35,113 nt of DNA, taken from contig MPNE01000038.1 in assembly GCA_002238865.1 (NCBI GenBank), forward strand, positions 1 to 35,113, in the 5' to 3' direction. Made by a program: the position numbers and the translations under genes. This document shows positions 19,575 through 35,113 of the stretch, piece by piece (positions within the stretch are counted from its first letter, which is position 1; the number at the start of each line of letters is the position of its first letter). This DNA comes from Gemmatimonadetes bacterium bin94. Its GTDB lineage: Bacteria; Gemmatimonadota; Gemmatimonadetes; Longimicrobiales; Gaopeijiaceae. The notes under the pieces are model-generated. The model was not told where the DNA came from. It did no database searches and saw only the letters and a list, made by a program, of their open reading frames with translations.

Positions 19575-19808
19575 TTGTCCAGTCACGACAGGAAAGGGCG
19601 TCTCTCTCCGGACGACCGGCGGCGCGAGAAACTGGAGTCTCAACCCCTCGAATCCGCGCTTGAGCGCAGGCGCAGGCTGTTCGACGAGGTCTTCGCCGAC
19701 TTCGACGCGCGCGGCGTCGGGCTGCGCATGGCCGACAACCTTCCGCGCGAGGCCATCTACGACCGTTCGGCGATCCGTTCCGTCCCTTCCCGCAGAACCG
19801 CAAGGTAG
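19575..19808 (+). CDS. Small hypothetical protein downstream of the antitoxin
   Basis: An open frame of 77 codons begins at TTG 19575, two bases after the antitoxin stop. The product is highly charged, with a predicted helix LESALERRRRLFDEVFADFD. No family is recognised. The final 17 codons overlap the 3' end of the convergent Fic gene, and the product past MADNLPREAIYD looks like read-through of that gene's complement, so the original C-terminus may have been lost. It may be a third member of the operon or a truncated remnant. Confidence 0.35.
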   Translation: MSSHDRKGRLSPDDRRREKLESQPLESALERRRRLFDEVFADFDARGVGLRMADNLPREAIYDRSAIRSVPSRRTAR

Positions 19809-20932
19809 CGCTCATAGGTGAAGATCCTGCCCCGCTGGCGGCCCGTGACCTCGCGAACGATGTCGAGATCCTCGAGAATCCGAAGCACCGCGGACACGGT
19901 CGGCGCGGACAGGCCGGTGCGCCGCGCGAGGTGGCGGATGTCACCGGCAGGACGTTCGACCAGGGACTGGTGCACTCGCAGCGCCGAACCCGCGCGCCGT
20001 CCCAGGCGGCCGATTCCCGAGCGGTCGTCGCGGATCGTTTCGCTGACGGACCGGGCCGTGGCGACCGCCTCTTCCGCCACCTCGCGCGCCCCCTCCAGGA
20101 AAAACCTCAACCAGGCTTCCCAATCTCCGGTGCGCCGAGTGTCGCCCAGAAGCCGGTAGTAGGTGCTCCGATTGCGTTTGAAGTACAGGCTGAGGTAAAG
20201 AAGCGGCTCCCGGAGGAGTCCGGCGTCGCACAGCATGAGGGTGATCAGCAGTCGTCCCAGTCGCCCGTTGCCGTCGAGGAAGGGATGGATGGTTTCGAAC
20301 TGGACATGCGCGAGCCCGGCCCTGACCAGCACGGGAAGGTCGTCGTCCGTGGCGTGAATGAACCGCTCCAGGTCGGCCATGCACTGCTGGACGTGGTTGG
20401 GGGGTGGCGGAACGAAGGCCGCGTTGCCGGGCCGCGATCCGCCGATCCAGTTCTGCGACCGCCGAAACTCACCTGGCGTCATGGCCTTCCCGCGACCGTC
20501 CGCAAACAACCTGGCGTGCATCTCCCGCAGTAGGCGATTCGAGATCGGGAAGCCGCCCCGCAAGCGCTCGACGCCGTGATTCAGGGCAGCGACGGCGTTT
20601 GACGTTTCGAGGACGTCGGTGGCGGAAATGCCCGGCCCACCTCCTGCTTCGTGCAGCATGAGGTCGGCCAGCGAGGACCGGGTGCCTTCGATCTGGGAGG
20701 ATAGGACCGCCTCTTTACGGACGTAGCCGTAGACGAAGACGGCTGCGTCGGGCAGGAGTTCGGTGACTGCGTCGAGGCGGCCGACGGCGGTTGCTGCTTC
20801 TTCGAGTAGAAGTCCGAGGCTCTCGCGGGAACGGATTCGCGGGGTCGGAGGAAGGGGCCCGGGTATGAACGCATGTACGGTCTCACCGCCGGTGGCGGTC
20901 GATTCGTAGGTGCCGGTGGATTCGCGTCGCAT
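19757..20932 (-). CDS. Fic-family protein (predicted AMP-transferase) with N-terminal inhibitory motif
   Basis: The 391-residue protein has the full Fic active-site loop HPFLDGNGRLGR (residues 216-227; HPFx(D/E)GNGRxxR), including the catalytic His216. The flap region includes RSQNWIGGSRPGNAAFVPPPP. The N-terminal SSQIEG (78-83) fits the class II inhibitory motif (S/T)xxxE(G/N), with Glu82 able to block ATP. A winged-helix segment at the C-terminus (DIRHLARRTGLSAPTVSAVL) is common in these larger Fic proteins. They transfer AMP to hydroxyl side chains of target proteins; the target here is unknown. The start is ATG 20932. It sits between a toxin-antitoxin pair and another small-gene pair. Confidence 0.92.
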   Translation of the reverse strand: MRRESTGTYESTATGGETVHAFIPGPLPPTPRIRSRESLGLLLEEAATAVGRLDAVTELLPDAAVFVYGYVRKEAVLSSQIEGTRSSLADLMLHEAGGGPGISATDVLETSNAVAALNHGVERLRGGFPISNRLLREMHARLFADGRGKAMTPGEFRRSQNWIGGSRPGNAAFVPPPPNHVQQCMADLERFIHATDDDLPVLVRAGLAHVQFETIHPFLDGNGRLGRLLITLMLCDAGLLREPLLYLSLYFKRNRSTYYRLLGDTRRTGDWEAWLRFFLEGAREVAEEAVATARSVSETIRDDRSGIGRLGRRAGSALRVHQSLVERPAGDIRHLARRTGLSAPTVSAVLRILEDLDIVREVTGRQRGRIFTYERYLAVLREGTERIAERS

Positions 20933-24900: not shown

Positions 24901-25185
24901 TACCAGGTGCGGAACCGGTCGAATCAGGATCCGCTGAACTTTCCGATCAAGGTGAATAATCGGTTGGCCAACCTGCTGTCGATGTCGGAGCGGGGGGATG
25001 GGCGGCCGGGGAGTGGGATGTATGCCGTGTTCGAGATCATGGTGGAGAGGCTGGGGGGGTTGATGGGGGAGCTGGAGGCCGTGTGGGAGGCTGAACTGGT
25101 GGAATTGAATGCTGAGCTGAGGAGGGTGGGCCTGGAGGAGATCTCGCTGGGTGGGGTGCCGGTGAGTGCTGGGGAGGGGGAGTAG
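21964..25185 (+). CDS. Secreted VPS10/sortilin-like BNR-repeat protein
   Basis: The 1073-residue protein starts with a signal peptide (SITLAATLLAIAPP; mature end near HALHAQQ). A long BNR/Asp-box beta-propeller region (about residues 50-770) follows, with about ten motifs of the type xTxDGGxxW: WKTTNGGDDW, YRSLDAGATW, FRSTDGGDSW, FKSVDGGDTW, FRSDDAGETW, WRTTDGGTNW, HVTRDGGENW and others. The C-terminal ~270 residues contain a beta-sandwich-like part and a helical tail (LEERLEESDDAGLREVGEGL). Such proteins are annotated as glycosyl-hydrolase-like or sortilin-like but no catalytic residues are identifiable. The start is GTG 21964; ATG 21982 would also retain the signal. Confidence 0.88.
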   Translation: MNRSSVMSITLAATLLAIAPPVDDQTLITRLLAGPHALHAQQVTLDPALLAGYSWRNLGPDRGGRSIAVSGVKGRPDEAYFGATGGGLWKTTNGGDDWHPVTDFQINSASVGAVAVSETNPDLVFIGTGETCIRGNILPGDGVYRSLDAGATWEHVGFSESHGISKIRIHPTNPDIVYVASFGKYGVPSEERGLFRSTDGGDSWERVLFRDERTGAIDIALDRNNPDVLYVSLWEAFRKEYTMSSGGPGSGMFKSVDGGDTWTEITRNPGMPQEGVVGRIGLAVSSANSNRVYSLFENDNGGLFRSDDAGETWELINDERRIRQRAFYYTHVFADHHDEDVVYVQNTSFFYSTDGGATYEVINNGTHGDFHDFWIDPDDPAHSVVANDGGGAVSFTTGSAWTDQEFSTAQFYHGVTTAHIPWHICGSQQDNSTLCLPSDWNAGQFASALADTADDSGARAPAITEGSMDVFYRSGGGEPGYIAPDPKDLDVFFSGTNNGRYIDKFNRRLGTSREVNPYPWFYSGEPAIDMVERWQWTFPIIFSPIDANVLYASSNRLWRTTDGGTNWDALSPDLTRADPMTLGHSGGPITGDMNGPEVYATIFSVGPGKVDIDVIWTGSDDGLVHVTRDGGENWTNVTPPDMPDFGRVSQVDASAFDAARAYVSARLALLDDFRPHIWRTDDFGETWMRIVDGIRDDAYVNSVREDPNRAGLLYAGTNHGVYISYDDGGSWQELNPDLPDMPITDVIPEHDELAMASHGRGFWVLDNIAPLRQAEPGMTERDLVLFDPAVAYRSANGVVLSWWVGEGNESAADAKLEIMDATGEVVRTFEPAVEGEERDRWSGPALPVGSGLQRLRWDLRTDPAASFPGMILWGVRTMAPAVPPGAYTVRLTVGGVAESTEVEVAPHPWITDVTVEDLVAQYEFGVRIRDKVDEANRAVIAIRGVKGELEERLEESDDAGLREVGEGLREAASAVEGEIYQVRNRSNQDPLNFPIKVNNRLANLLSMSERGDGRPGSGMYAVFEIMVERLGGLMGELEAVWEAELVELNAELRRVGLEEISLGGVPVSAGEGE

Positions 25186-25235
25186 ACGACGCGTGAGGTC
25201 GAAGCGCGCCGGGTGGCTTAGGGGGTTGGGTGAGG

Positions 25236-25260
25236 AACCCTTAACGTAGCGTTAGGGTTG
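25236..25260. repeat. Intergenic palindrome, copy 2
   Basis: In the 314-base gap 25186-25499, AACCCTTAACG and CGTTAGGGTT flank TAG, giving a 10-bp inverted repeat with one bulged T. Its right half, CGTTAGGGTTG, is identical to that of the 4178-4199 element. It lies about 50 bases after a stop codon, as copy 1 does. The rest of the gap shows no gene; the promoter of the ubiquitin-like operon should lie in its last part (25440-25490). Confidence 0.6.
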
Positions 25261-25499
25261 AGGGGCACGGGGTCGTGATGGGAAGTAGGGATGGCGGTGA
25301 TTGTGGGGCGGGATAGGCAGCGGTGAGAGGACCCTCTGTGCGATTGAATTGGGCCAGCGCTGTGAGTAGCCGGACAACGGAGCAACGCGTGCAAGACAAC
25401 CACTGAGGTCACCAACTGGACGATGGCCCTTGACGCCTGTCGGCCCTTCGGTCATTATTCGGCTCGTTGCAACCACGATCACCAAGAAAGGACATCAGA

Positions 25500-25769
25500 A
25501 TGACCATCGAACTATCCGCGCCCGCTGAGAAGCTCAATGTGGAGGTGTTTTCACCCCGCGACCCGAATCCCAAGAAATTCAGTTGGCCGACGATCTGGAC
25601 GGTCGGGGAGGCTGCCGACGATGCGGCCAAGGCTTTTGGGTATGAAGCGGGCACTCCAACTCTCCAGAACAAAGACCACGAAGTTCTTCGGCGTAAAGAC
25701 ACCTTGTTGGATGCCGGTGTCCGCGAAGGTGATCAACTTGAATTGACGGATACTGGCGGAGGAGTGTGA
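25500..25769 (+). CDS. Ubiquitin-like protein with C-terminal Gly-Gly-Gly-Val
   Basis: The 89-residue product has the size and pattern of a beta-grasp ubiquitin-like protein: LNVEVFSPRD (strand 1), WPTIWTVGEAADDAAKAFG (central helix), LQNKDHEVLRRKDTLLDAGV and GDQLELTDTGGGV at the end. The Gly-Gly-Gly-Val tail suggests activation at a diglycine after removal of one or two residues by the neighbouring JAB peptidase. ATG 25500 follows AAAGGA. It is the first gene of a four-gene operon with E2-, JAB- and E1-like genes, which makes the Ubl reading much stronger than the sequence alone. Only one beta-grasp domain is present, unlike the two-domain BilA. Confidence 0.82.
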   Translation: MTIELSAPAEKLNVEVFSPRDPNPKKFSWPTIWTVGEAADDAAKAFGYEAGTPTLQNKDHEVLRRKDTLLDAGVREGDQLELTDTGGGV

Positions 25770-25775
25770 TTAGAG

Positions 25776-26267
25776 GTGCTCTCAGATAAGATTGTTGAGG
25801 CAACCCTAAAGGCGGAGCTGCCAGGGGCCATTGAATGGGCCAAACGTCACGGTATTTCAGTCATGTCGTTGCTTCCTGATGCGCGTGTACTCCGAGTCGT
25901 ACTGGTGCAGGAGACAACGCAGGAGGAGTACTTCCTCCAGGGCTGCTTCGACCAGTATAAGGAACTGCCGCCGGTCTGGGAGTGGCGTGACAAATCTTGG
26001 GCCGAAAGGAGTAATACTAGCCTTAGTCCCGAGCGAAGAGATACGCCGTTTGGGCCTTCCATGTTTCTGCCTCACGGGAACCAGGCGATCATCTGCGCCC
26101 CGTTCAATCGCATGGCCTTCGATTCTCATGGCGGTCCTCACAAGGACTGGGGCGAACCCGCGCAGTGGAGGACCCCGCGGGACCCGTGGGTTCACGCAGT
26201 CACGATTGGTGACATGCTCCAAGCAATCTTACGTGACTTTCGATACACTAGGACCAGGATGGGATGA
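25776..26267 (+). CDS. E2-like conjugating enzyme
   Basis: The 163-residue protein has the layout of prokaryotic E2 (Prok-E2) families. An N-terminal alpha/beta region (VLRVVLVQETTQEEYFLQ) leads to the conserved block QAIICAPFNRMAFDSHGGPH (103-122) then KDWGEPAQW and a terminal helix TIGDMLQAILRDF. Cys107 is the likely thioester-forming residue, with His122 and Trp125 nearby. This is an inference from family pattern, as eukaryotic HPN is absent. GTG 25776 starts six bases after the Ubl stop and is the only start before the conserved N-terminal strand. Its stop overlaps the JAB start (ATGA). Confidence 0.8.
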   Translation: MLSDKIVEATLKAELPGAIEWAKRHGISVMSLLPDARVLRVVLVQETTQEEYFLQGCFDQYKELPPVWEWRDKSWAERSNTSLSPERRDTPFGPSMFLPHGNQAIICAPFNRMAFDSHGGPHKDWGEPAQWRTPRDPWVHAVTIGDMLQAILRDFRYTRTRMG

Positions 26268-26827
26268 CTGTCCACCGAACAAGGCCACTGCCCCGTGCGA
26301 AGCTACGTGGTAGTTACAAGCTAGCACCGAATCTGATCAAGCAAACACAACGGGCGCTGTACTCATTTTTCCAAGCAGGCCGATACGAAGGGGGACATGA
26401 GGGAATCTGCTATTGGGCCGGTCGCGAAGAGAGTGATCTGACTTTTCTCGAAGCTGTCATTGTTCCCGAGGCCCATCATGAACGATTCGGTGTGTTCGTG
26501 TCTGCCGCCGGTTTTGGCGAAGCTGCTCGCCGCGCCCGTGGGATGGGACTCGGAGTACTCGCTCAAGTACACAGTCATCCAGGATCTGACGTACGGCATT
26601 CAGACGGAGACGACGACCTAATCGTGATGCCGTTTGAGAACATGTTGTCCGTGGTGGCACCTCACTACGGGCGAACATTGCGGTCAATCGCGGATTGTGG
26701 TGTCCACCAGTTTCAAGATCATCGATGGGTGCACTGTGATCCGGAATCTGTTGCGCCTACGTTCGGGCGAATCCGGCCTTGGCACCGTTGGGCAGCCCGG
26801 CTTCGCAGGACAAGACAACCAAAGTGA
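26264..26827 (+). CDS. JAMM/JAB-family metallo-isopeptidase
   Basis: The 187-residue protein has the full JAMM zinc motif. The upstream catalytic Glu46 lies in GGHEGICYW, and HSHPGSDVRHSDGD (103-116) gives His103, His105, Ser113 and Asp116 in exact HxHx7Sx2D spacing. Such Prok-JAB enzymes mature Ubl precursors or remove them from targets. Starts at ATG 26264 inside the E2 stop and ends one base into the E1 ATG. The C-terminal Arg-rich stretch (HRWAARLRRTRQPK) is not part of the fold. Confidence 0.92.
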   Translation: MTVHRTRPLPRAKLRGSYKLAPNLIKQTQRALYSFFQAGRYEGGHEGICYWAGREESDLTFLEAVIVPEAHHERFGVFVSAAGFGEAARRARGMGLGVLAQVHSHPGSDVRHSDGDDDLIVMPFENMLSVVAPHYGRTLRSIADCGVHQFQDHRWVHCDPESVAPTFGRIRPWHRWAARLRRTRQPK

Positions 26828-28209
26828 TGACGGCAGCTCGCTTCTACGAAGAACGGGACCGACGAACGGTCGAGTATCTCATTGGTAACTCGTCACCGCT
26901 GATGCTTCCTGTGTCCGTCCACGCCGGTGACGATGCCTGCTTAACCAAAGCGGGCCAGATGGTATTGGTCACATTGGCCAACCAAATGGCTCGAGTTCAC
27001 CGGAACCTGCACTTCGCATTGCGCTCCCCAGAGGCGAGGTTGTTGACCAATCCTCTATGCCGGGGACGGACACTTGGCGAGGAGATTGAACAGCTATGCG
27101 GCCGGATCGACCCATTCGGTTCTTTCACTGTAGGCGGGCCGTCATTACAATCCCGTAGTTCAGTAGCGGTCGGAGTGGGCCTTGATGTTAGTGCCAACTT
27201 GAATTGGTATCTTGGCAACGAGCGATTCATCGCGAGGCTGCAGCGCAGTCGCTGCCCGGTGGGCGAGGATAGCACGGGCGACCTCTTTGGCGCGGGTTTG
27301 GCCGCGGTACTTGGGGCCAGCGCCGCGTTCAAGAACGGAATGGGCGTAGAGACCGTACCAACCGTGCTATCTGCTTGGAACCTCAACACCGGCGACGATG
27401 CTGCCCCCGGGCCTTCAAATGTTCCAATCTTGAATGTAGGGCGGGGTCTGATGGTTGGTGCGGGAGCGGTGGGATCTGCAGTGATGTATTGGCTAGCGCA
27501 CCTCGGTGACGTTAGTGATTGGACGGTGGTCGATGCCGATGTCGTCAAGCTACATAATACTAATCGCTGCCTACTGTTTTTTCCGGACGACGCCGGGTGG
27601 CCGGATCGAATTCCGAGATCTAAGGTCAGTTGCATTGGAACCGTGCGCGACGACGTGACACCTGTCAGGCAATGGTATCACGAGGCAGACGCGTGCGCTG
27701 ATATCTTCGACGTGAATCTGATCCTAGCGAATGATCATCACGTGAGGACGCTTGTGTCTAGCCGCAACGATCCGATACAACTCCAAGGGACTACGGGTCA
27801 ATCGTGGTTGAGTCAGCTACACCGACACATCGTAGGCCGGGACGATTGTGTTCGGTGTCGAATGGATGACATCAAGGATCCGGCATTGATATGCGGTGAG
27901 GTCCCACTGGATGTTTCCGACGGACCGTCGGAAACGGATGCCGCGCTGCCATTCTTGACGGCGGCGGCCGGCTTGATGGTGGTTTCGGCATTGTTACGCT
28001 TACACGTCGGTGAGTTTGGTCGGCGTCGAGTAAACACTTGGCGATGGGATTTCCGAACCACACAAGCGATGACTTCGTTCGGTACGCATCGCTGCCACGA
28101 TGGCTGCTCTACGAAGTTGCCTTCATCGGTGCGACGTGAGATAGCACAGAACACGCGCTGGGTGGGTAGTCGGTGGCTGAATTCTTTGGGCAGCGCTAAG
28201 CCGGGATGA
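26827..28209 (+). CDS. ThiF/E1-like Ubl-activating enzyme
   Basis: The 460-residue protein has a Rossmann adenylation domain. GAGAVG (211-216) binds ATP, VVDADVV (Asp236, Asp238), Asn244 and Arg247 complete the site, and Lys266 lies in PRSKV. Cys341/Cys344 (CVRC) and Cys423/Cys427 (CHDGC) are likely Zn ligands. Cys356 in LICGEVPL is a candidate thioester Cys. AALPFLTAAAGLMVVSALLRL matches the usual helix after the catalytic loop. Residues 1-205 form a separate region that I cannot assign. ATG 26827 overlaps the JAB stop. The enzyme would adenylate the Ubl tail and pass it to the E2-like protein. Confidence 0.9.
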   Translation: MTAARFYEERDRRTVEYLIGNSSPLMLPVSVHAGDDACLTKAGQMVLVTLANQMARVHRNLHFALRSPEARLLTNPLCRGRTLGEEIEQLCGRIDPFGSFTVGGPSLQSRSSVAVGVGLDVSANLNWYLGNERFIARLQRSRCPVGEDSTGDLFGAGLAAVLGASAAFKNGMGVETVPTVLSAWNLNTGDDAAPGPSNVPILNVGRGLMVGAGAVGSAVMYWLAHLGDVSDWTVVDADVVKLHNTNRCLLFFPDDAGWPDRIPRSKVSCIGTVRDDVTPVRQWYHEADACADIFDVNLILANDHHVRTLVSSRNDPIQLQGTTGQSWLSQLHRHIVGRDDCVRCRMDDIKDPALICGEVPLDVSDGPSETDAALPFLTAAAGLMVVSALLRLHVGEFGRRRVNTWRWDFRTTQAMTSFGTHRCHDGCSTKLPSSVRREIAQNTRWVGSRWLNSLGSAKPG

Positions 28210-28279
28210 GGCGACAGGGTTTTGACGGAGAAGCCGAGTGCAAACACGCTGACAGCAGCCTCTTTGAGTGATAGCATCT

Positions 28280-28298
28280 CGGGCTGCAGGGAAGCCCG
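28280..28298. terminator. Candidate hairpin between convergent E1-like and HD-HSP90 genes
   Basis: CGGGCT (28280-28285) and AGCCCG (28293-28298) form a 6-bp stem with a seven-base loop in the 105-base convergent gap. No T-tract follows on either strand, so it is a weak terminator candidate. Confidence 0.35.
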
Positions 28299-28314
28299 TG
28301 TGGTGCTGCCTACA

Positions 28315-30003
28315 TCACACGTCAACGCCATCAATGGCGACTAGCACAGGATGAGGAGCGGCAATCTCGTACGCGAAATCCGCGAAGTTGACGGTATGGC
28401 CATCGATCGCACTTGGCTTAAGCGCCAACTCGACTCTCGTGCATACACTCATGCCGAAGTCTTGTGGCCGGTTGGCGGTCAAGGTGGAACGAAGGGACAT
28501 ACCGCCCTCAAATGACAAACACCTAGTGTCATCGAGACCCTTATCAAACCGCCGTGAGAACACGCGGACACATTCTGCAGCGGCAAAGACAGAGAAGAAG
28601 CCGATCCCAAAGCGACCGACGGGGCTAAATCCAGAGGACTGAAGACCGGGGAATTGGCGCGCAGCCCGTTCACTGTACCAGAAGCTGCGACCGAAGTTCA
28701 ACAAATCAGTAGTAAGCGTCGACTGTGCCATCCCCACCCCGTTGTCGTCCACGTGGAGGGTGAATTCCCCGGCGGCCGAACATTTCAGGCAAACGACAAT
28801 GGAGGTGTCGAACTCGCCCGCGGTCGCCAAGGCTTTCCGGGCGGCGATGGCATCTGCCGCGTTTTGAATAAGTTCTCGGAGGGCTACACCGAGGCTATCA
28901 CTGGTCTCTTGGTAGAGCTGCTTTCCTCGTATACCATGCACTAGAGTGGAAACATCGGATACGTGTACAGTTGAATCTACGGGTTCCCAATTGTCCGTTT
29001 CGACATATTTGGCCAGTTGCCTCACACGGCCAGCACCAGCGACACGTCTTCTCGCGAAGACACGACGCGACTGAACGGAAGAAGAGGCCAGCAAGTCGTT
29101 GCACCGGCGAAGCTCGCGATCAAAGTTGGCGACCAGATCATACGCGAGCCACCAAGCGAACGCCTCGGACCGCGGGAAGGGGCTCGTGGATCCTACCATC
29201 ACCTGTTCAGGGTTATCAGGTCTGACGGCCAGTCGTCCAAGGCGGCTCTGCCCGAGCCAATGCGTGCGTGCAAGGAAATTCATCTGGAGGACCCGGGCCA
29301 GAAACGATGGGGCGCGTGCTCCGTCAATGTGCCCTGCGTCAGCAACCCTGAGAATACATGCGATCTTTAGCGAGTCTACTGTCCAGTCGTTGTCGAAGAA
29401 TGCCGGTGCCGGTCGAGGCGTAGAGAACCTCGTCACTATCTTGTCTAGATCCCAGTGGTGTGATGATGCGATGTTGCCGATGAGAGCGCCGTAACTGTCG
29501 CGCAACTCGCGATCGTCGATCAAGTAGATATCCCCGTCGTCACTCTGCCAGGACTCCGTTGCAAGGCGTCCGGCTTGGGACGCATGCAAAGCGCGGAGCG
29601 CCTGGAAGTCCGCTTCGGTTTCGAGGTCGTCGGCAGGACACCCAGTCCGCGCTAGGCGACCGCGAGCATCACGCCACTCAAGGGTGTTCCGCACGGAGTT
29701 TCGACCGCCGGCGTAAGCCTCGAAACAAAGTCCAGCGTCATGAATGAGGGCCGCAGCGCCGAACACGTAGGCCTCGGGGGCGTTGAGAGGATAGTCGGGG
29801 CCAGCCACTGTACTAGCCACTTCCCAAAGCGCATCCGAGTGCGAGATATCGTGGATCGACAGGCCCGGCAGAGCGGTGACAATGCGCGACGTCAGATCGC
29901 GCGCCTTGCTGCGAATACCTCGAAGTGACGAAACTAACCGCGCGATGTCGTCGTTCGCGGCCGCGTCCCCGAATGCACATTGGAATAGCTGGGTACTTTC
30001 CAT
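28315..30003 (-). CDS. HD-domain protein fused to an HSP90-like (GHKL) ATPase
   Basis: The 562-residue protein has two parts. Residues ~45-230 are an HD phosphohydrolase-like domain: HDISHSDALWEV, ALIHDAG (His88-Asp89), SSHHW (181-184) and RVADAGHID. Residues ~360-530 are a GHKL/HSP90-type ATPase: LRELIQNAADA (Glu377, Asn381, Asp384), DDNGVGM (419-425) and GRFGIGFFSVF (463-473). The chain stops about 30 residues after the ATPase fold, where HSP90-type proteins normally continue, so a C-terminal truncation is possible. The ATG at 30003 opens directly onto the gene. It is convergent with the Ubl operon. G+C is lower than in the 1-25 kb region. Confidence 0.87.
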   Translation of the reverse strand: MESTQLFQCAFGDAAANDDIARLVSSLRGIRSKARDLTSRIVTALPGLSIHDISHSDALWEVASTVAGPDYPLNAPEAYVFGAAALIHDAGLCFEAYAGGRNSVRNTLEWRDARGRLARTGCPADDLETEADFQALRALHASQAGRLATESWQSDDGDIYLIDDRELRDSYGALIGNIASSHHWDLDKIVTRFSTPRPAPAFFDNDWTVDSLKIACILRVADAGHIDGARAPSFLARVLQMNFLARTHWLGQSRLGRLAVRPDNPEQVMVGSTSPFPRSEAFAWWLAYDLVANFDRELRRCNDLLASSSVQSRRVFARRRVAGAGRVRQLAKYVETDNWEPVDSTVHVSDVSTLVHGIRGKQLYQETSDSLGVALRELIQNAADAIAARKALATAGEFDTSIVVCLKCSAAGEFTLHVDDNGVGMAQSTLTTDLLNFGRSFWYSERAARQFPGLQSSGFSPVGRFGIGFFSVFAAAECVRVFSRRFDKGLDDTRCLSFEGGMSLRSTLTANRPQDFGMSVCTRVELALKPSAIDGHTVNFADFAYEIAAPHPVLVAIDGVDV

Positions 30004-30140
30004 AATCTATCCTACCCATAACGCCGCTCGCGCGCCACACCGAGGCAGTCGTACAGGACAATACCGAAGCGCCAGGACAAGCTGGCGCAGCCACCATCGT
30101 GACACGTGCGCCATGGCATCTGAAGCCAAGACAGTGAGTG

Positions 30141-30346
30141 GGCGAGCCGGAGTGCAACGGCGTCGCGGGGTGCTTCATCAGGACGCTCAAGGAGGACTGC
30201 ATCTACCTGCACGACTCGAGAAGGCCAGAGCGGTGATCGGGACCTTTGTCGAGCGCTACAACAACGGCAGGCTCCTCCAGCGGCACGGGTACATGACCCC
30301 GGCCAGTGCTCGCGAGAACTCAGCCGGAGGGCGGCCTGATGTTTAA
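30141..30346 (+). pseudogene. IS3-family transposase (OrfB) 3' remnant, frameshifted
   Basis: Reading from 30141, GEPECNGVAGCFIRTLKEDC then IYLHD resembles the IS3-type integrase core. At about 30216 one base appears to be missing and the match continues in another frame as EKARAVIGTFVERYNNGRLL then QRHGYMTPASAR. A stop lies just before 30138 and no start is available, so this is a decayed fragment. In the following stretch (30347-30635) I see no gene; GTCCAGAAGTCCGGGACCACC near 30359 resembles an IS3-type end. The remnant separates the HD-HSP90 gene from the NTPase gene. Confidence 0.8.
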
Positions 30347-30635
30347 GCCGTCCGCTTGTCCAGAAGTCCGGGACCACCCCACCCGGCTGCTTGAGCTCTC
30401 GGCGGGTATGCCGCAACCCGATCCGGCTGAGCGCTACCAAGGGAGATCCGCACGCCTGTGATATCACCCGTCCCGCTGATCACCGGTTGGCGCCGACCCG
30501 AGGGTCACGGACAACCAAGAGGCAGTATCTGAGCGATGTCGATGCCTCGGTCGGCTCTCTGCGACTCCCTTTCCTACTGGAACTGTCGAAAGGATAGGCC
30601 ATGCGACAGCGGATTGGTTGGGAGACTGCGAGGAA

Positions 30636-32858
30636 CTACCATCCTCTCCTCTTCTTTCTTCTCTTCTTCCTACCCTTCTTGGATGGTTTCCTAACCGGGG
30701 CTTGTACAATCTTGAGATAGTTTCGTTGGAACTTGTCCAAGCGCCTGTTGAGTTGACGCTCGATCCAATCAAAGCGTCCAGGGTTTCGCATCTTCGAAAT
30801 TCCCTTCCTCAGTAGAGTCGCCGGAACAGTGAAGACAATTCGGTTGTGCTCGTGATAGACCTCCCGCAACCATGTCCGTTCATTTTCGCTAACGCCCTCC
30901 TGCTCAGTCCGATATACCACCATCCCTAGGCGTCCGTGCTCGGTCGTCATGTAGGAGAGTGCTTGCCGATAGTCTGCGGGCTTAAGCGATTCGTAGTTCT
31001 TTACTTCGATCAGCACCTGCCGTGCCTCAAAGTCCTCGAGAATTCGCCTCCAGAAGCCGGTGGCTGCCATGTTCGTGGCGACTATATCTCGGCGCTGTGG
31101 AGCATCGTGAGGGTTGGGGTGGAACTGCATATTCCGCAGCTTCTGTGCAAAGAGAATGCGGACGGCCTTCAGGGCCCACTTCTCAAACGCCGCGGCGCCA
31201 CTATGCCCGGTCGGAATTCCCGGGAGTTCCGCGAGCGCCTTGCCAATCTGACGAATTCGCAGATCCGCCATGTCGCTTGGATCCCCCGGAACCTCATAGT
31301 CATCGTTGATGCGAATCAGGACGTCCGAATTCGGCTCGTCGGCATCGACTTCCAGCGCCCGCCAGTAGCAGGGATGGACCACGACCCTTCGGCTTCCTTC
31401 GTAGCGGTCCGTATCCGAGCGAGATCCATCGTGACAAAAGGTGTACTGACCCTCGAGAAGCGGATTCTCAAAGCCTAGAAAGCCAACCCCGTACAATGCG
31501 CTCATGACCTGCTTTCCTGTGCCGAACAACGCGAAGTCGCTCGCCGTCTGGTTGTCGTACGCATCTTCTTCAATCACGGAATCAAGGTGTGACACAACGT
31601 CCTCAAGCGAGGAGATAGCAGGGTGACGGTCGAACGCTGTAACAAAAGACCGAAGGCCCGGCAGGACCGAATCGTATTCCTTCAACAGGTCAGTCAGTCT
31701 GTCTTCGGAGATCCTTGTCGCCGCACCATCTAGCGCCGCCTGCCCGATCGAGTGATCACCGCGCCGAGCCGCCACATCATTGGCGGAGTTGACAAGTACG
31801 AGTACATCCCGTGGTCTATACAAAGTGCATTTCAGGAACTTGTCAAATCCCGATCGTCCAACGAGTGACCTGTCCACGACGCGGTTCCACACGCGTTCGT
31901 TACTCTCGATGTTGAGGTCGAATCTTGCTCTCAGTCTCGAACAGACAAACTCGAAGAGCGTTGCCTCGTCCCAGTGGAGCCGCTGAGTAGAGCCCTCAAT
32001 CTGTCTAGAGAAGTCAGCGTGGAGATGGGCCAGAGCCCGAAACATGTTGTCGCGGATGAAGAGGATGCCGTGAATCCCTGATTGGTGCTCGGCGAGGTCT
32101 GCGACCGCAGACGTCAGACCGTCCAATACAGAGATCGCAGAAGGCTTCGGTACCCAGCCTTCGTCCAGTCCATCATAGAGCAAGACCGCCACCCAGTTGA
32201 TGTCCGTTAGCGCGCCTATAACTGCCTGCTCAAGACGCCGGAGATCGTAGAGTCTAGCGAGCGTTCCTGGGAGTTCGGCTGGCGCCCGGCCGTCTTTCAT
32301 GCCGCGGGCGATCAAGTCCGCGCACCGTTCTACAGAGCCCCCGCGCCCCCGGTGTGGTGGACGACGACCCCTGTGCAAGAAGTGGGTTCTATGCTCAGAC
32401 AGATACGCTTCGAGGAAGGGAAAATGCTTGCTCTTGGCGGCCTTATAGTGATGTCGAAGATCCTCGGCAACGCTGGCGAGGATGTGGATTGTCCATGCGA
32501 CCCGAGAGGCAGCCCGCATATGTTGGTACGAAGCGCCATCTCGCGAAAGAAGGTGCTGCAGGCGTATCGCTTCATATTCCGTGGGCTGTCCCGATAACAC
32601 GAACGTTTGGGGCGCGCGTTCGTAGTGCTCAGTCACTTTTGTGAATAGCGCGCTCTTCCCAGTGCCTCTCCGACCTACTACGAAGTTGCGATCCTTCGAC
32701 TGAGTCAGCGAGGCGTAGTCCGCTGTCTGGAGGAATGCATCGCGAAGCATGAGGGTGTCCGACTCGGCACGAGGCGAGCCGAGTAGGTTCCCCGGGCGGA
32801 TGTAGCTCGAGGACTCCATCGTGGCGGTCGCCGAATCATGCCCCATAAGTCTCATCAT
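30636..32858 (-). CDS. P-loop NTPase (Sll1717-like) with C-terminal restriction-nuclease-like domain
   Basis: The 740-residue protein has Walker A GRRGTGKS (62-69) and a Walker B-like WVAVLLYDGLDEGW (222-235), the layout of the Sll1717-like P-loop ATPases. Near residue 590-640 comes RRDIVATN, then VLIEVKNYESLKPADYRQAL (615-634). The D...(E)xK spacing resembles the PD-(D/E)xK restriction superfamily. The protein ends in a Lys/Arg tail (KKGRKKRRKKRRGW), a likely nucleic-acid contact. ATG 32858 is followed by a second in-frame ATG at 32855; GAGAGGAAG lies just upstream. G+C is lower than in the surrounding chromosome. A defence role is inferred from architecture and context. Confidence 0.8.
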   Translation of the reverse strand: MMRLMGHDSATATMESSSYIRPGNLLGSPRAESDTLMLRDAFLQTADYASLTQSKDRNFVVGRRGTGKSALFTKVTEHYERAPQTFVLSGQPTEYEAIRLQHLLSRDGASYQHMRAASRVAWTIHILASVAEDLRHHYKAAKSKHFPFLEAYLSEHRTHFLHRGRRPPHRGRGGSVERCADLIARGMKDGRAPAELPGTLARLYDLRRLEQAVIGALTDINWVAVLLYDGLDEGWVPKPSAISVLDGLTSAVADLAEHQSGIHGILFIRDNMFRALAHLHADFSRQIEGSTQRLHWDEATLFEFVCSRLRARFDLNIESNERVWNRVVDRSLVGRSGFDKFLKCTLYRPRDVLVLVNSANDVAARRGDHSIGQAALDGAATRISEDRLTDLLKEYDSVLPGLRSFVTAFDRHPAISSLEDVVSHLDSVIEEDAYDNQTASDFALFGTGKQVMSALYGVGFLGFENPLLEGQYTFCHDGSRSDTDRYEGSRRVVVHPCYWRALEVDADEPNSDVLIRINDDYEVPGDPSDMADLRIRQIGKALAELPGIPTGHSGAAAFEKWALKAVRILFAQKLRNMQFHPNPHDAPQRRDIVATNMAATGFWRRILEDFEARQVLIEVKNYESLKPADYRQALSYMTTEHGRLGMVVYRTEQEGVSENERTWLREVYHEHNRIVFTVPATLLRKGISKMRNPGRFDWIERQLNRRLDKFQRNYLKIVQAPVRKPSKKGRKKRRKKRRGW

Positions 32859-33237
32859 CTTCCTCTCGGCTTCGATGGTGTTCTACAGACTGTCAATGGC
32901 AGCAACTCCGGCTCTCTCGCGGTCCGGAAGGCTGAGAGACGTGAAGATGGGGTGTGGGTTGATCGACGTGCGACCGGGTTAGAGTGGTAGCGATTGCTGT
33001 GAAATTGCAGAAGCCATAAGGCGACCAGACTTGTGCGGTCCGCGGCTTCACGCGGGTCGGTCATCAGGTCCAGGCCCCCCGTGGCAGTGAAGGAAACAGA
33101 CTACTCTCCATGCAGGGTGGGCCAGCCGCCAGCGATTGTCAAGCGTGAGTATTGTCCTACGACAAGTGAGCCCGAACTCGTGGGCGGTTGCCAGGGAGAG
33201 ATGAGCCGGAAGTCCGGGGCGAAGAGATGATTGGAGG
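32859..33237. other. Gene-free stretch between the NTPase and integrase remnant
   Basis: I find no gene or RNA gene in these 379 bases. The first ~100 bases should carry the promoter of the NTPase on the minus strand. TGTCAAGCGTGAGTATTGTCC near 33137 resembles the start of an IS481-like or related insertion end, which would agree with the integrase remnant that begins at 33238, but no matching right end is certain. Confidence 0.4.
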
Positions 33238-33756
33238 ATGATCGTGACACTTCGCACCGAACGAATACGCACCCTCGACCAGCTCCGCGCCTTCCTCGAG
33301 GGCAACGAGCCCGCGGATTTCGAGCTCACTGACCGCACGTCCGCCTACGCCTTCGTGCGGCGCACGCTGGTCCGCTTCGAGTACCACGGCCTCGGGAGAC
33401 CGGACAAGACCCGGGTCAAGCGGTTCCTGGAGAAGGTGACGGGCTTCTCCAGGGCCCAGGTCACCCGCCTCATCCGGCAGCACCGCCGGAACCGGCCACA
33501 TCCGCGACCATCGCAAGAAACCCCCCGCCAAGCCCTTTCCTCGCCTCTACCCGCCCCTTGGCGTCGCGTTGCTGGCCGAGGTGGAGAGGCCTCCTCCGCT
33601 ACCAGCCCAGGGCCGCGTGGGCACGGTCAACCTTCCCCCGTCCCGGTTTCCGATAGTCGCAGGTCGGCGCGTTCAACTCAGCCGGGACTACCGTGGTCGC
33701 CCTCTTCATCCCTCCTCCACCCGCATCCACGGCACCGCCGACGGCAGAAGCCGTGA
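33238..33756 (+). pseudogene. Integrase/IS481-like transposase, N-terminal remnant
   Basis: From ATG 33238, after GGAGG, the product reads LRTERIRTLDQLRAFLEG, SAYAFVRRTLVRFEYHGLGR, and RVKRFLEKVTGFSRAQVTRLIRQHRR. This is the N-terminal HTH part of a DDE-type integrase I recognise as a family. After about residue 88 this frame becomes Pro/Ser/Arg-rich, while a shifted frame reads PPAKPFPRLYPPLGVALLAE, the expected continuation, so a frameshift lies near 33500. No catalytic DDE core follows. The gene is a truncated remnant. Confidence 0.75.
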
Positions 33757-33805: not shown

Positions 33806-35113
33806 CTATTCTGGGAGCATCCGCCCCAATATCGCCCGCAGCACGCCGTTACACGCACCCGCCATTCCGCGCTCTTCGCCCCCCTCCCCGACGACGACCG
33901 AAGCCACCGGAATCGCCCCGACCCCCTCGACCTCTCCCGGCAACACGTCAGCCGAAGACACCACCCGGCCGCCAGACAGCCCCCCACCCCCCGGAACCCC
34001 AAAGAACCGAAACTCCCCACCCGGGTACAGGATCCACACCGACCGTGCGTCGGGAATCGCGTCGCGGTAGGCGTGCATCTTGTAGATGTCTGCACGCTTG
34101 AACGAACCCGCCCGCTCTCTGGCCTTCTCGTCGTCGGCGTCCTTGTCGCCAGCGGCAAGTCCCACGTCGATCAGCCCGTGGACCCGGAACTTCGCGTCGA
34201 ACAGGTGGAGGCCCGCGTTCGGCCCACTGGGGACCCGGAGAGCGATGTCGGGAATCAGCGGCACGGAGTAGGAATGCCATTGTCGCCCCTGTGGCCTGGA
34301 GAAGCGCCGGTTGTACACCAGACGCACGCCCGGATCCCATACGAAGGTCCCGCCAGCTACGAAAGAGGTCCGGAAGAGACCGCTGGTCAGCCGTCCCGAT
34401 CGAACGGGTGGGCTCCCCAACACCGCCGAAATCTCGTGAACCAGGCGGAAGAAGGTCCAAAGCTCGTACAGAAGCGCGATGTTCTTGAGTTCGAGGAGGT
34501 CGCGCATGCCGTCCTTGTCGAGCGGGATCGTCGGGGCCAGGCGAATCCGGGAGAAGTGCTGGAGCACGCGGCGATACCCCCGCCGTTGCTGAAGCACGGT
34601 CGACGAGAAGGGGATCCGCACCATTCTTCCGACTTCCTCCCACATGCTGTGCCGGGCGATGGGCATCAGCGACGCCTCCATCCGATCGCAATCCCGCAGC
34701 AGGTTCCGTCGGAATGCGTCCGGCCGCCGGGAGCTTACCGCGGACCGCATGCGACCGATGATGGTCCGTGCCTGCCCGATGAAGGCCTTCACGAAGCGGT
34801 TCTCGGGGGTATCGGTTGTCGGCCTGATCTTCCGCTCCGAGACGACTTCAGGGAGACGCCGGCCCAGGCGTTTAGCGAGCCTCGCGCCCGAGGGAGAGAG
34901 TGACGACGCCACCACGGCCATCCCCGGGCGGGTCACGAGATCGAGGGGGGTATGCGCGTCCACTCTGGTCATGGCTTCAATCCGCACGTCCCGGCGATCG
35001 CTGCGCCACAACCGGTGCGGCTCCCTGACGATCATCTCGAGGGCGGGAAGCAGGCGTACTTCCTCCGGAGCCTTGTCCGAAAGGATGTAGCGCAGGTAGA
35101 CGAAAGCGTGGTA
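33806..35113 (-). CDS. DUF2357 / PD-(D/E)xK nuclease-like protein (5' end outside window)
   Basis: The minus-strand frame is open to the right edge of the window, so the start is missing; 435 codons are seen. The N-terminal visible part has LDLVTRPGMAVVASSLSP, TTDTPENRFVKAFI and VLQHFSRIRLAPTIPLD, as in DUF2357 proteins. The C-terminal part has FVWDPGVRLVYNRRF, SVPLIPDIALRVPSG and LHLFDAKFRVHG. The Asp...DAK spacing fits a PD-(D/E)xK nuclease (PDDEXK_7-like). Such proteins are often encoded beside McrB-like AAA GTPases in McrBC-related restriction systems; a partner would lie beyond 35113. G+C is higher than in the Ubl region, so it may have a separate origin. Confidence 0.85.
   Translation of the reverse strand, partial: YHAFVYLRYILSDKAPEEVRLLPALEMIVREPHRLWRSDRRDVRIEAMTRVDAHTPLDLVTRPGMAVVASSLSPSGARLAKRLGRRLPEVVSERKIRPTTDTPENRFVKAFIGQARTIIGRMRSAVSSRRPDAFRRNLLRDCDRMEASLMPIARHSMWEEVGRMVRIPFSSTVLQQRRGYRRVLQHFSRIRLAPTIPLDKDGMRDLLELKNIALLYELWTFFRLVHEISAVLGSPPVRSGRLTSGLFRTSFVAGGTFVWDPGVRLVYNRRFSRPQGRQWHSYSVPLIPDIALRVPSGPNAGLHLFDAKFRVHGLIDVGLAAGDKDADDEKARERAGSFKRADIYKMHAYRDAIPDARSVWILYPGGEFRFFGVPGGGGLSGGRVVSSADVLPGEVEGVGAIPVASVVVGEGGEERGMAGACNGVLRAILGRMLPE

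What the first reader, a model, noticed from the sequence alone, without database searches (positions are those of the whole stretch)
25500..28209. Compact bacterial ubiquitin-like conjugation operon (Ubl-E2-JAB-E1)
Seen: four genes on one strand, the first two separated by six bases and the rest joined by overlapping stop/start codons. They encode a beta-grasp protein with a Gly-Gly-Gly-Val tail, an E2-like protein with Cys107, a JAMM protease with exact HxHx7Sx2D, and a ThiF/E1-like enzyme with GAGAVG, VVDAD and Cys pairs. Known: Bil and type II CBASS use related sets in phage defence. Inference: this is a complete conjugation/deconjugation cassette. Its order differs from Bil as I know it, the Ubl is single-domain, and no CD-NTase is present, so it may be a distinct or little-described class.
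Basis: partly seen in the sequence, partly recalled or inferred. Interest (0 to 1): 0.92.

Follow-up and report, generated by a model that had tools for sequence, protein, structure and literature searches.

The report
Compact bacterial ubiquitin-like tagging operon
Four adjacent bacterial genes encode a miniature version of the ubiquitin protein-tagging machinery; they belong to the known Bil anti-phage group but form a separate, stripped-down branch shared by bacteria and archaea.

Summary
In detail: Ubl (25500-25769), E2 (25776-26267), JAMM protease (26264-26827) and E1 (26827-28209) form a tight operon. The E2, invisible to Pfam, folds like an E2; its best solved match is bacterial BilB (Z 14.0). 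The E1 matches BilD over nearly its whole length (Z 39.4). The JAMM protease matches BilC. So this is a Bil-like ubiquitin-like conjugation and deconjugation cassette. It is nevertheless a distinct lineage. Fifteen relatives (actinobacteria, Chloroflexi, alphaproteobacteria, haloarchaea, a viral contig) carry the same four genes in the same order; the E1s form one supported clade (97/97). That clade lacks BilD's CYS-domain insertion; its invariant Cys356 aligns with BilD's catalytic Cys417 but sits in a short loop. The E2 keeps the Cys and last His of the CEHH motif only. Context supports phage defence: a variable defence hotspot, low G+C, and HTH/ImmA regulators upstream of most relatives (not of the window's copy). 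Function is inferred, not tested.

The parts
25500..25769 (+). Ubl (BilA-like): single beta-grasp protein, 89 aa; C-terminal GGGV; Gly88 codon 25761-25763, one residue (Val89) to be trimmed
   Evidence: weak Pfam YukD match 1.4e-4, below cut-off; family profile matches ubiquitin-like domains (ubiquilin UBL domains 5e-7) in PDB; Gly86 and Gly88 are the nearly invariant tail residues in 16 relatives. Fold not modelled.
25776..26267 (+). E2-like conjugating enzyme (BilB-like), 163 aa, GTG start; catalytic Cys107 codon 26094-26096; invariant His122, Trp125; Arg112 invariant and Asn111 nearly so
   Evidence: AlphaFold2 model pLDDT 84; Foldseek best hit 8tz0 chain C (bacterial E2) TM 0.61/0.68; VIA-align Z 14.0, rmsd 2.4, 135 aa; Cys, His, Arg, Trp invariant in 16 of 16
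26264..26827 (+). JAMM/JAB metalloprotease (BilC-like deconjugase), 187 aa; Glu46, His103, His105, Ser113, Asp116
   Evidence: PDB 8tyx BilC 3.9e-8; PADLOC BilC 1.6e-11; Prok-JAB 1e-4, below Pfam cut-off; residues invariant
26827..28209 (+). E1-like activating enzyme (BilD-like), 460 aa: degenerate N-terminal adenylation half (about 1-190) and active C-terminal half (about 200-410); catalytic Cys356 codon 27892-27894 in a short loop; CxxC 341/344 and CxxxC 423/427
   Evidence: ThiF 2.6e-9; PADLOC BilD 3e-10; family profile to 8tyz BilD 9.8e-28; model to 8tyz Z 39.4 over 398 aa; Cys356 aligns with BilD Cys417
25185..33747 (.). Variable slot (defence hotspot) between a conserved Vps10/BNR gene (ends 25185) and a downstream stretch shared with congener G299
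   Evidence: Ten congeners share the Vps10/BNR gene but hold other genes next to it (GmrSD, DNA methylases, ResIII helicase, Fic); operon G+C 0.567 against 0.67 upstream

Best explanation
A compact Bil-type ubiquitin-like conjugation operon, most likely an anti-phage system. Proposed cycle: (1) the JAMM protease removes Val89 from the Ubl to expose Gly88; (2) the C-terminal half of the E1 adenylates Gly88 with ATP, the N-terminal half serving as the inactive pseudo-dimer partner; (3) the Ubl moves to E1 Cys356, which sits in a short loop instead of a helical CYS domain; (4) it is passed to E2 Cys107; (5) the E2, with no separate E3, attaches it to lysines of target proteins, probably of the phage; (6) the JAMM protease can reverse the tag. 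Shown here: the genes, the E1 and E2 folds (models), homology of the JAMM protease, conserved catalytic residues, conserved operon and defence-hotspot context. Inferred from Bil: every enzymatic step, the target and the anti-phage role.
For: E1, E2 and JAMM each have their Bil counterpart as best solved relative: BilC 3.9e-8, BilD 9.8e-28 by profile and Z 39.4 by fold, BilB top by Foldseek and by Z 14.0. Cys356 aligns with the Cys at position 417 of NGR234 BilD; BilD Cys417 forms the thioester according to the review PMC11354881. Ubl tails keep Gly with one to three extra residues in most relatives, as expected if a deconjugase matures them. Same four genes and order in 15 other loci. Defence context: hotspot, SoFic 5.6e-113 nearby. 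HTH/ImmA genes upstream in 11 of 15 relatives resemble CapH+CapP, DNA-damage-responsive regulators of CBASS and Bub operons (PMC13373217).
Against: No activity or phage protection has been shown for any member of this clade. The window's own E2 and Ubl match no BilB or BilA model, and its operon lacks the adjacent HTH/ImmA regulator. The E1 loop with Cys341, Cys344 and Cys356 is modelled with low confidence (residues 335-371, pLDDT under 50). The Ubl structure was not modelled. The ancient, cross-domain spread would also fit a general stress-response modification system.
Confidence: 0.75

Rival explanations
1. Same conjugation chemistry, but a stress-response or protein-quality system rather than phage defence: the tag is put on host proteins after damage.
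For: No phage target is known. Regulators upstream of most relatives resemble DNA-damage-responsive CapH+CapP (PMC13373217, which itself says Bub operons may mediate more general stress responses). The clade spans haloarchaea and several bacterial phyla.
Against: Sporadic distribution (4 of 395 sampled genomes of the phylum); lies in a slot filled by restriction and other defence genes in congeners; plasmid and viral-contig copies; closest characterised relatives are described as anti-phage.
Confidence: 0.15
2. A sulphur-carrier or thiolation system (ThiS/MoaD with ThiF/MoeB-like E1) in which the Ubl is thiocarboxylated, not conjugated.
For: E1 also matches ThiF and MoeB. Its short loop with Cys356 aligns with the same stretch of ThiF rather than with a CYS domain.
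Against: A dedicated E2 with invariant Cys and the E2 fold; fused inactive N-terminal half as in BilD, absent in ThiF; no thiamine, molybdopterin or cysteine-synthesis gene among the neighbours scanned.
Confidence: 0.05
3. An ordinary member of the already described Bil family, so that 'compact lineage' is only divergence without biochemical meaning (a rival to the claim of distinctness, compatible with the conjugation mechanism).
For: Same gene order and component folds as Bil. Other Bil-related E1s also have a short stretch before the catalytic Cys (PADLOC-type).
Against: Separate E1 clade with 97/97 support; CxxC-x11/12-C loop signature fixed in 15 of 15 members; E2 motif differs from both Metal_CEHH and PADLOC-type E2.
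Confidence: 0.3

Closest known systems
Structurally characterised Bil (BilABCD; PDB 8tyx, 8tyz, 8tz0; NGR234-type: DUF2604, Metal_CEHH, Mov34, Prok-E2_C/ThiF)
   Same: Four genes in the same order, single-domain Ubl, BilC-type JAMM protease, E1 with inactive N-terminal plus active C-terminal adenylation halves, catalytic Cys in the same alignment column.
   Different: E1 lacks the CYS domain: 12-13 residues between CxxC and the catalytic Cys against 74-75 in NGR234/R. etli BilD. E2 has C plus the last His, with Asn-Arg where CEHH has other residues, and does not match PF14455. Ubl does not match DUF2604.
PADLOC-type Bil (PDLC03844-03847, named bacterial ISG15-like)
   Same: JAMM and E1 match BilC 1.6e-11 and BilD 3e-10; same gene order; E2 profiles align over 139 columns, probability 96.
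   Different: Window E2 and Ubl match neither BilB nor BilA. PADLOC-type E2s seen here have Tyr at the catalytic Cys column. Their E1s fall outside the compact clade and lack the CxxC pair.
Bub and multi-ubiquitin operons (BubCD, PDB 9ea5; L053-L055)
   Same: Ubl, JAB and E1 parts, sometimes an E2; similar upstream regulators (PMC13373217).
   Different: Several beta-grasp domains in the Ubl, different order or E1 joined to JAB in BubCD; E1 only distantly similar (8.8e-5).
Type II CBASS (Cap2 E1-E2 fusion, Cap3 JAB, CD-NTase)
   Same: E1, E2 and JAB enzymes for protein conjugation.
   Different: No CD-NTase found in the window; E1 and E2 are separate genes; a dedicated Ubl is present.
ThiF/MoeB and UBA5-type E1s
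   Same: Adenylation core and catalytic Cys in a short loop.
   Different: Those have a single adenylation module; here two halves are fused as in BilD and eukaryotic Uba1-type E1s.

Membership tests
Structurally characterised Bil (NGR234/8tyz type) | Gene order Ubl-E2-JAB-E1 | tested here: met
Structurally characterised Bil (NGR234/8tyz type) | BilC-type JAMM protease with Glu, HxH, Ser, Asp | tested here: met
Structurally characterised Bil (NGR234/8tyz type) | E1 with inactive plus active adenylation halves | tested here: met
   Profile 9.8e-28 including the N-terminal half; model residues 3-451, Z 39.4
Structurally characterised Bil (NGR234/8tyz type) | About 80-residue helical CYS domain carrying the catalytic Cys of E1 | tested here: not met
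   12-13 residues in place of 74-75 in all 15 members
Structurally characterised Bil (NGR234/8tyz type) | E2 with CEHH motif (Pfam Metal_CEHH) | tested here: not met
   Cys and last His shared; Glu and first His absent; no PF14455 match
Structurally characterised Bil (NGR234/8tyz type) | DUF2604-type Ubl | tested here: inconclusive
   No Pfam match; hhalign probability 59
PADLOC-type Bil | BilC and BilD models match | tested here: met
   1.6e-11 and 3e-10; BilD in 7 of 8 relatives, best 1.2e-29; PADLOC's own score thresholds not applied
PADLOC-type Bil | BilA and BilB models match | tested here: not met
   No match for the window proteins; BilB matches 5 of 8 relatives, best 1e-5
PADLOC-type Bil | Protects cells against phage | not testable with these tools
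   Needs a phage challenge assay
Type II CBASS | Adjacent CD-NTase and E1-E2 fusion | tested here: not met
   E1 and E2 are separate genes; no CD-NTase in scanned ORFs; SMODS matches lie on other contigs
Bub | E1 joined to JAB in one protein (BubCD) | tested here: not met
   JAMM and E1 are separate ORFs; only a weak E1 profile match to BubCD
ThiF/MoeB sulphur-carrier systems | Stand-alone adenylation module without an E2 | tested here: not met
   E2 present with E2 fold; E1 is a fused two-half protein

The most novel reading that the evidence does not exclude
An undescribed, cross-domain type of Bil whose E1 combines the fused two-half body of Uba1/BilD enzymes with a catalytic Cys in a short ThiF/UBA5-like loop. 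It would be a minimal ubiquitin cascade that hands the Ubl to a real E2 without any CYS domain, possibly close to the state before CYS domains arose or after one was lost.
Probability: 0.35. Interest if true: 0.68.

Novelty: new variant of a known kind. Interest (0 to 1): 0.5.

Why it matters
If active, it would be among the smallest full ubiquitin-like cascades (about 900 residues in four proteins), found in both bacteria and haloarchaea. It would let one test directly whether an E1 without a CYS domain can pass a ubiquitin-like protein to an E2 by transthiolation, which bears on how the eukaryotic E1 was assembled. It would also widen the set of Bil operons: of the four genes here, only two match the defence-gene models at hand.

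Tried and rejected
Gene-order and single-domain arguments for novelty: rejected, since NGR234 and R. etli Bil share both. CBASS, Bub and sulphur-carrier readings: rejected (membership test). Searching the eight-row E1 alignment in contig collections failed, no conserved stretch; a three-row alignment worked. JAMM protein against deposited phages: no match. A profile of the E2 family against PDB sequences gave no significant hit; only the fold comparison showed the E2 relation clearly. The primary Bil papers could not be read: those looked up (Chambers 2024, Millman 2022, Gong 2025, Ye 2026) are not held, and Hor 2024 was not looked up. Bil facts come from PMC11354881, PMC13373217 and PDB titles, so I could not check whether those papers already list members of this clade. 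Iyer 2006 (PMC1779556) describes related operons; its type prototyped by NGR234 corresponds to the characterised Bil, and I found none there that equals this one.

Full report
OBSERVATION. The four ORFs are real and contiguous on the + strand: Ubl 25500-25769 (89 aa), E2 25776-26267 (163 aa, GTG start), JAMM protease 26264-26827 (187 aa), E1 26827-28209 (460 aa). The six-base gap and the ATGA and TGATG overlaps are as described. The window is one whole 35-kb contig of a 4.42-Mb genome that holds no second copy of the E1.

SEQUENCE IDENTITY OF THE PARTS. Pfam sees only ThiF in the E1 above its cut-off; YukD (Ubl) and Prok-JAB are just below, and the E2 matches nothing. PADLOC gives BilC for the JAMM protease (1.6e-11) and BilD for the E1 (3e-10). 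Against solved structures the JAMM protease matches BilC (8tyx, 3.9e-8). A profile of eight E1s matches BilD (8tyz, 9.8e-28), with the alignment covering the N-terminal inactive half too. The Ubl family profile matches ubiquitin-like domains such as those of ubiquilins (5e-7).

FOLDS. The E2 model (pLDDT 84) has as best match the bacterial E2 of the E1-E2-Ubl complex 8tz0 by Foldseek (top of the list, TM 0.61/0.68, but E 0.019) and by VIA-align (Z 14.0, rmsd 2.4, 135 residues, then eukaryotic E2s at Z 9-10.5). The E1 model (pLDDT 75) matches BilD at Foldseek E 6.9e-22 and Z 39.4 over 398 residues, rmsd 3.6, with Uba1/UBA6-type E1s at Z about 25. The loop 335-371 with Cys341, Cys344 and Cys356 is modelled with pLDDT under 50, so its shape is unknown.

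RELATIVES AND OPERON CONSERVATION. Tblastn in plasmids found five operons (Mycolicibacterium, Mesorhizobium, three haloarchaea). The phylum sample gave 4 of 395 genomes including the window's own, one of them in the same genus. Genome and viral contigs added Micromonospora, a Chloroflexi MAG, two Mycobacterium records, Bradyrhizobium and one viral contig; two more came from class-wide searches. All of these have Ubl, E2, JAMM, E1 in that order (in L017 the E1 is cut by the contig end). E2 Cys107, His122, Arg112 and Trp125 are invariant in 16 of 16; E1 Cys341, Cys344 and Cys356 in 15 of 15.

COMPARISON WITH BIL. The structurally characterised Bil is the NGR234-type operon DUF2604 / Metal_CEHH / Mov34 / Prok-E2_C-ThiF, in the order Ubl-E2-JAB-E1. 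Its Ubl is a single ~100-aa protein. So gene order and single-domain Ubl do not separate the window's operon from Bil. In NGR234 BilD the catalytic Cys lies at position 417, the number given for the thioester Cys of BilD in PMC11354881, and it aligns with window Cys356. Real differences: (a) 12-13 residues between CxxC and the catalytic Cys in every compact E1 against 74-75 in BilD, so there is no room for the CYS domain; (b) the E2 keeps Cys and the last His of CEHH but not the Glu or first His, carrying an Asn-Arg pair instead; (c) the window's Ubl and E2 match neither the DUF2604/Metal_CEHH nor the BilA/BilB models. PADLOC-type Bil operons are a third branch (E2 = DUF7665). A tree of 25 E1s puts the window with 14 relatives in one clade (97/97), apart from NGR234-type, multi-ubiquitin and PADLOC-type E1s. 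Several branches are long, and the relatives were found by E1 similarity, so the clade is supported for this sample, not for all Bil.

CONTEXT. Upstream lies a Vps10/BNR gene shared by the congeners. In ten of them the next genes differ and include GmrSD, DNA methylases, a ResIII helicase and Fic. One congener, G247, carries another compact operon in the same slot, but its E1 lies in a different branch, so the two were probably acquired separately. Operon G+C is 0.567 against 0.67 upstream. SoFic (5.6e-113), an HD-CE/Hsp90-type ATPase, a Sll1717-type ATPase and a DUF2357/PDDEXK_7 protein lie nearby. In 11 of 15 relatives an ImmA/IrrE gene, often with an HTH gene, lies upstream, usually divergent. 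This recalls CapH+CapP, described as DNA-damage controllers of CBASS and Bub operons (PMC13373217). The window's operon has no such neighbour; the genome's only Peptidase_M78 match is on another contig.

MECHANISM. Most likely: JAMM trims Val89, E1 adenylates Gly88 and loads the Ubl on Cys356, E2 takes it on Cys107 and tags lysines, JAMM reverses the tag. Genes, folds (E1, E2), conserved residues and context are shown; every reaction, the target and the phage-defence outcome are inferred from Bil.

VERDICT. Works like Bil: likely. Member of the characterised Bil type: not claimed, because the CYS domain and the CEHH motif were tested and not met. Best described as a compact sister lineage within the wider Bil group, a new variant of a known kind. 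Whether the primary Bil papers already include members of this clade could not be checked.

Noticed in passing
window 19757-20932 (-): Strong match to the SoFic defence protein (PADLOC 5.6e-113), a few kilobases from the operon.
   Followed up: partly
window 28315-30003 (-): HD-CE domain joined to an Hsp90-type ATPase domain (Pfam 8.7e-46 and 4.8e-7), directly beside the operon on the other strand; not found beside the other operons.
   Followed up: partly
window 30636-32858 (-): Sll1717-family P-loop ATPase (6.7e-64) with a weak nuclease-like C-terminal match.
   Followed up: no
window 33806-35035 (-): DUF2357 plus PDDEXK_7 nuclease-like protein, shared with congener G299 (82% identity).
   Followed up: partly
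L043 4506-4991, L044 5075-5560, L045 7166-7651, L046 4936-5418: PADLOC-type Bil E2s (Pfam DUF7665) have Tyr at the column of the catalytic Cys; two of them have no Cys at all in that motif. How they would conjugate is unclear.
   Followed up: partly
L007 4624-4884, L009 4518-4778: Haloarchaeal Ubls end in GKGASE or GKGAGR rather than GGGV or GSGV.
   Followed up: no
L052 7166-8524: TIR and caspase-like genes lie just downstream of a characterised-type Bil operon on the Rhizobium etli plasmid p42a.
   Followed up: no
L018 8878-10470: Viral contig with a compact operon has a protein that reads like a large serine recombinase nearby, hinting at mobility.
   Followed up: no
L015 7932-9344: E1 from a record named Mycobacterium sp. 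KBS0706 is nearly the same as those of Mesorhizobium and Bradyrhizobium: recent transfer or a misnamed record.
   Followed up: no
genome contigs C44 and C33 (L086, L087): Two SMODS-domain (CD-NTase-like) matches elsewhere in the same genome, not next to this operon.
   Followed up: no
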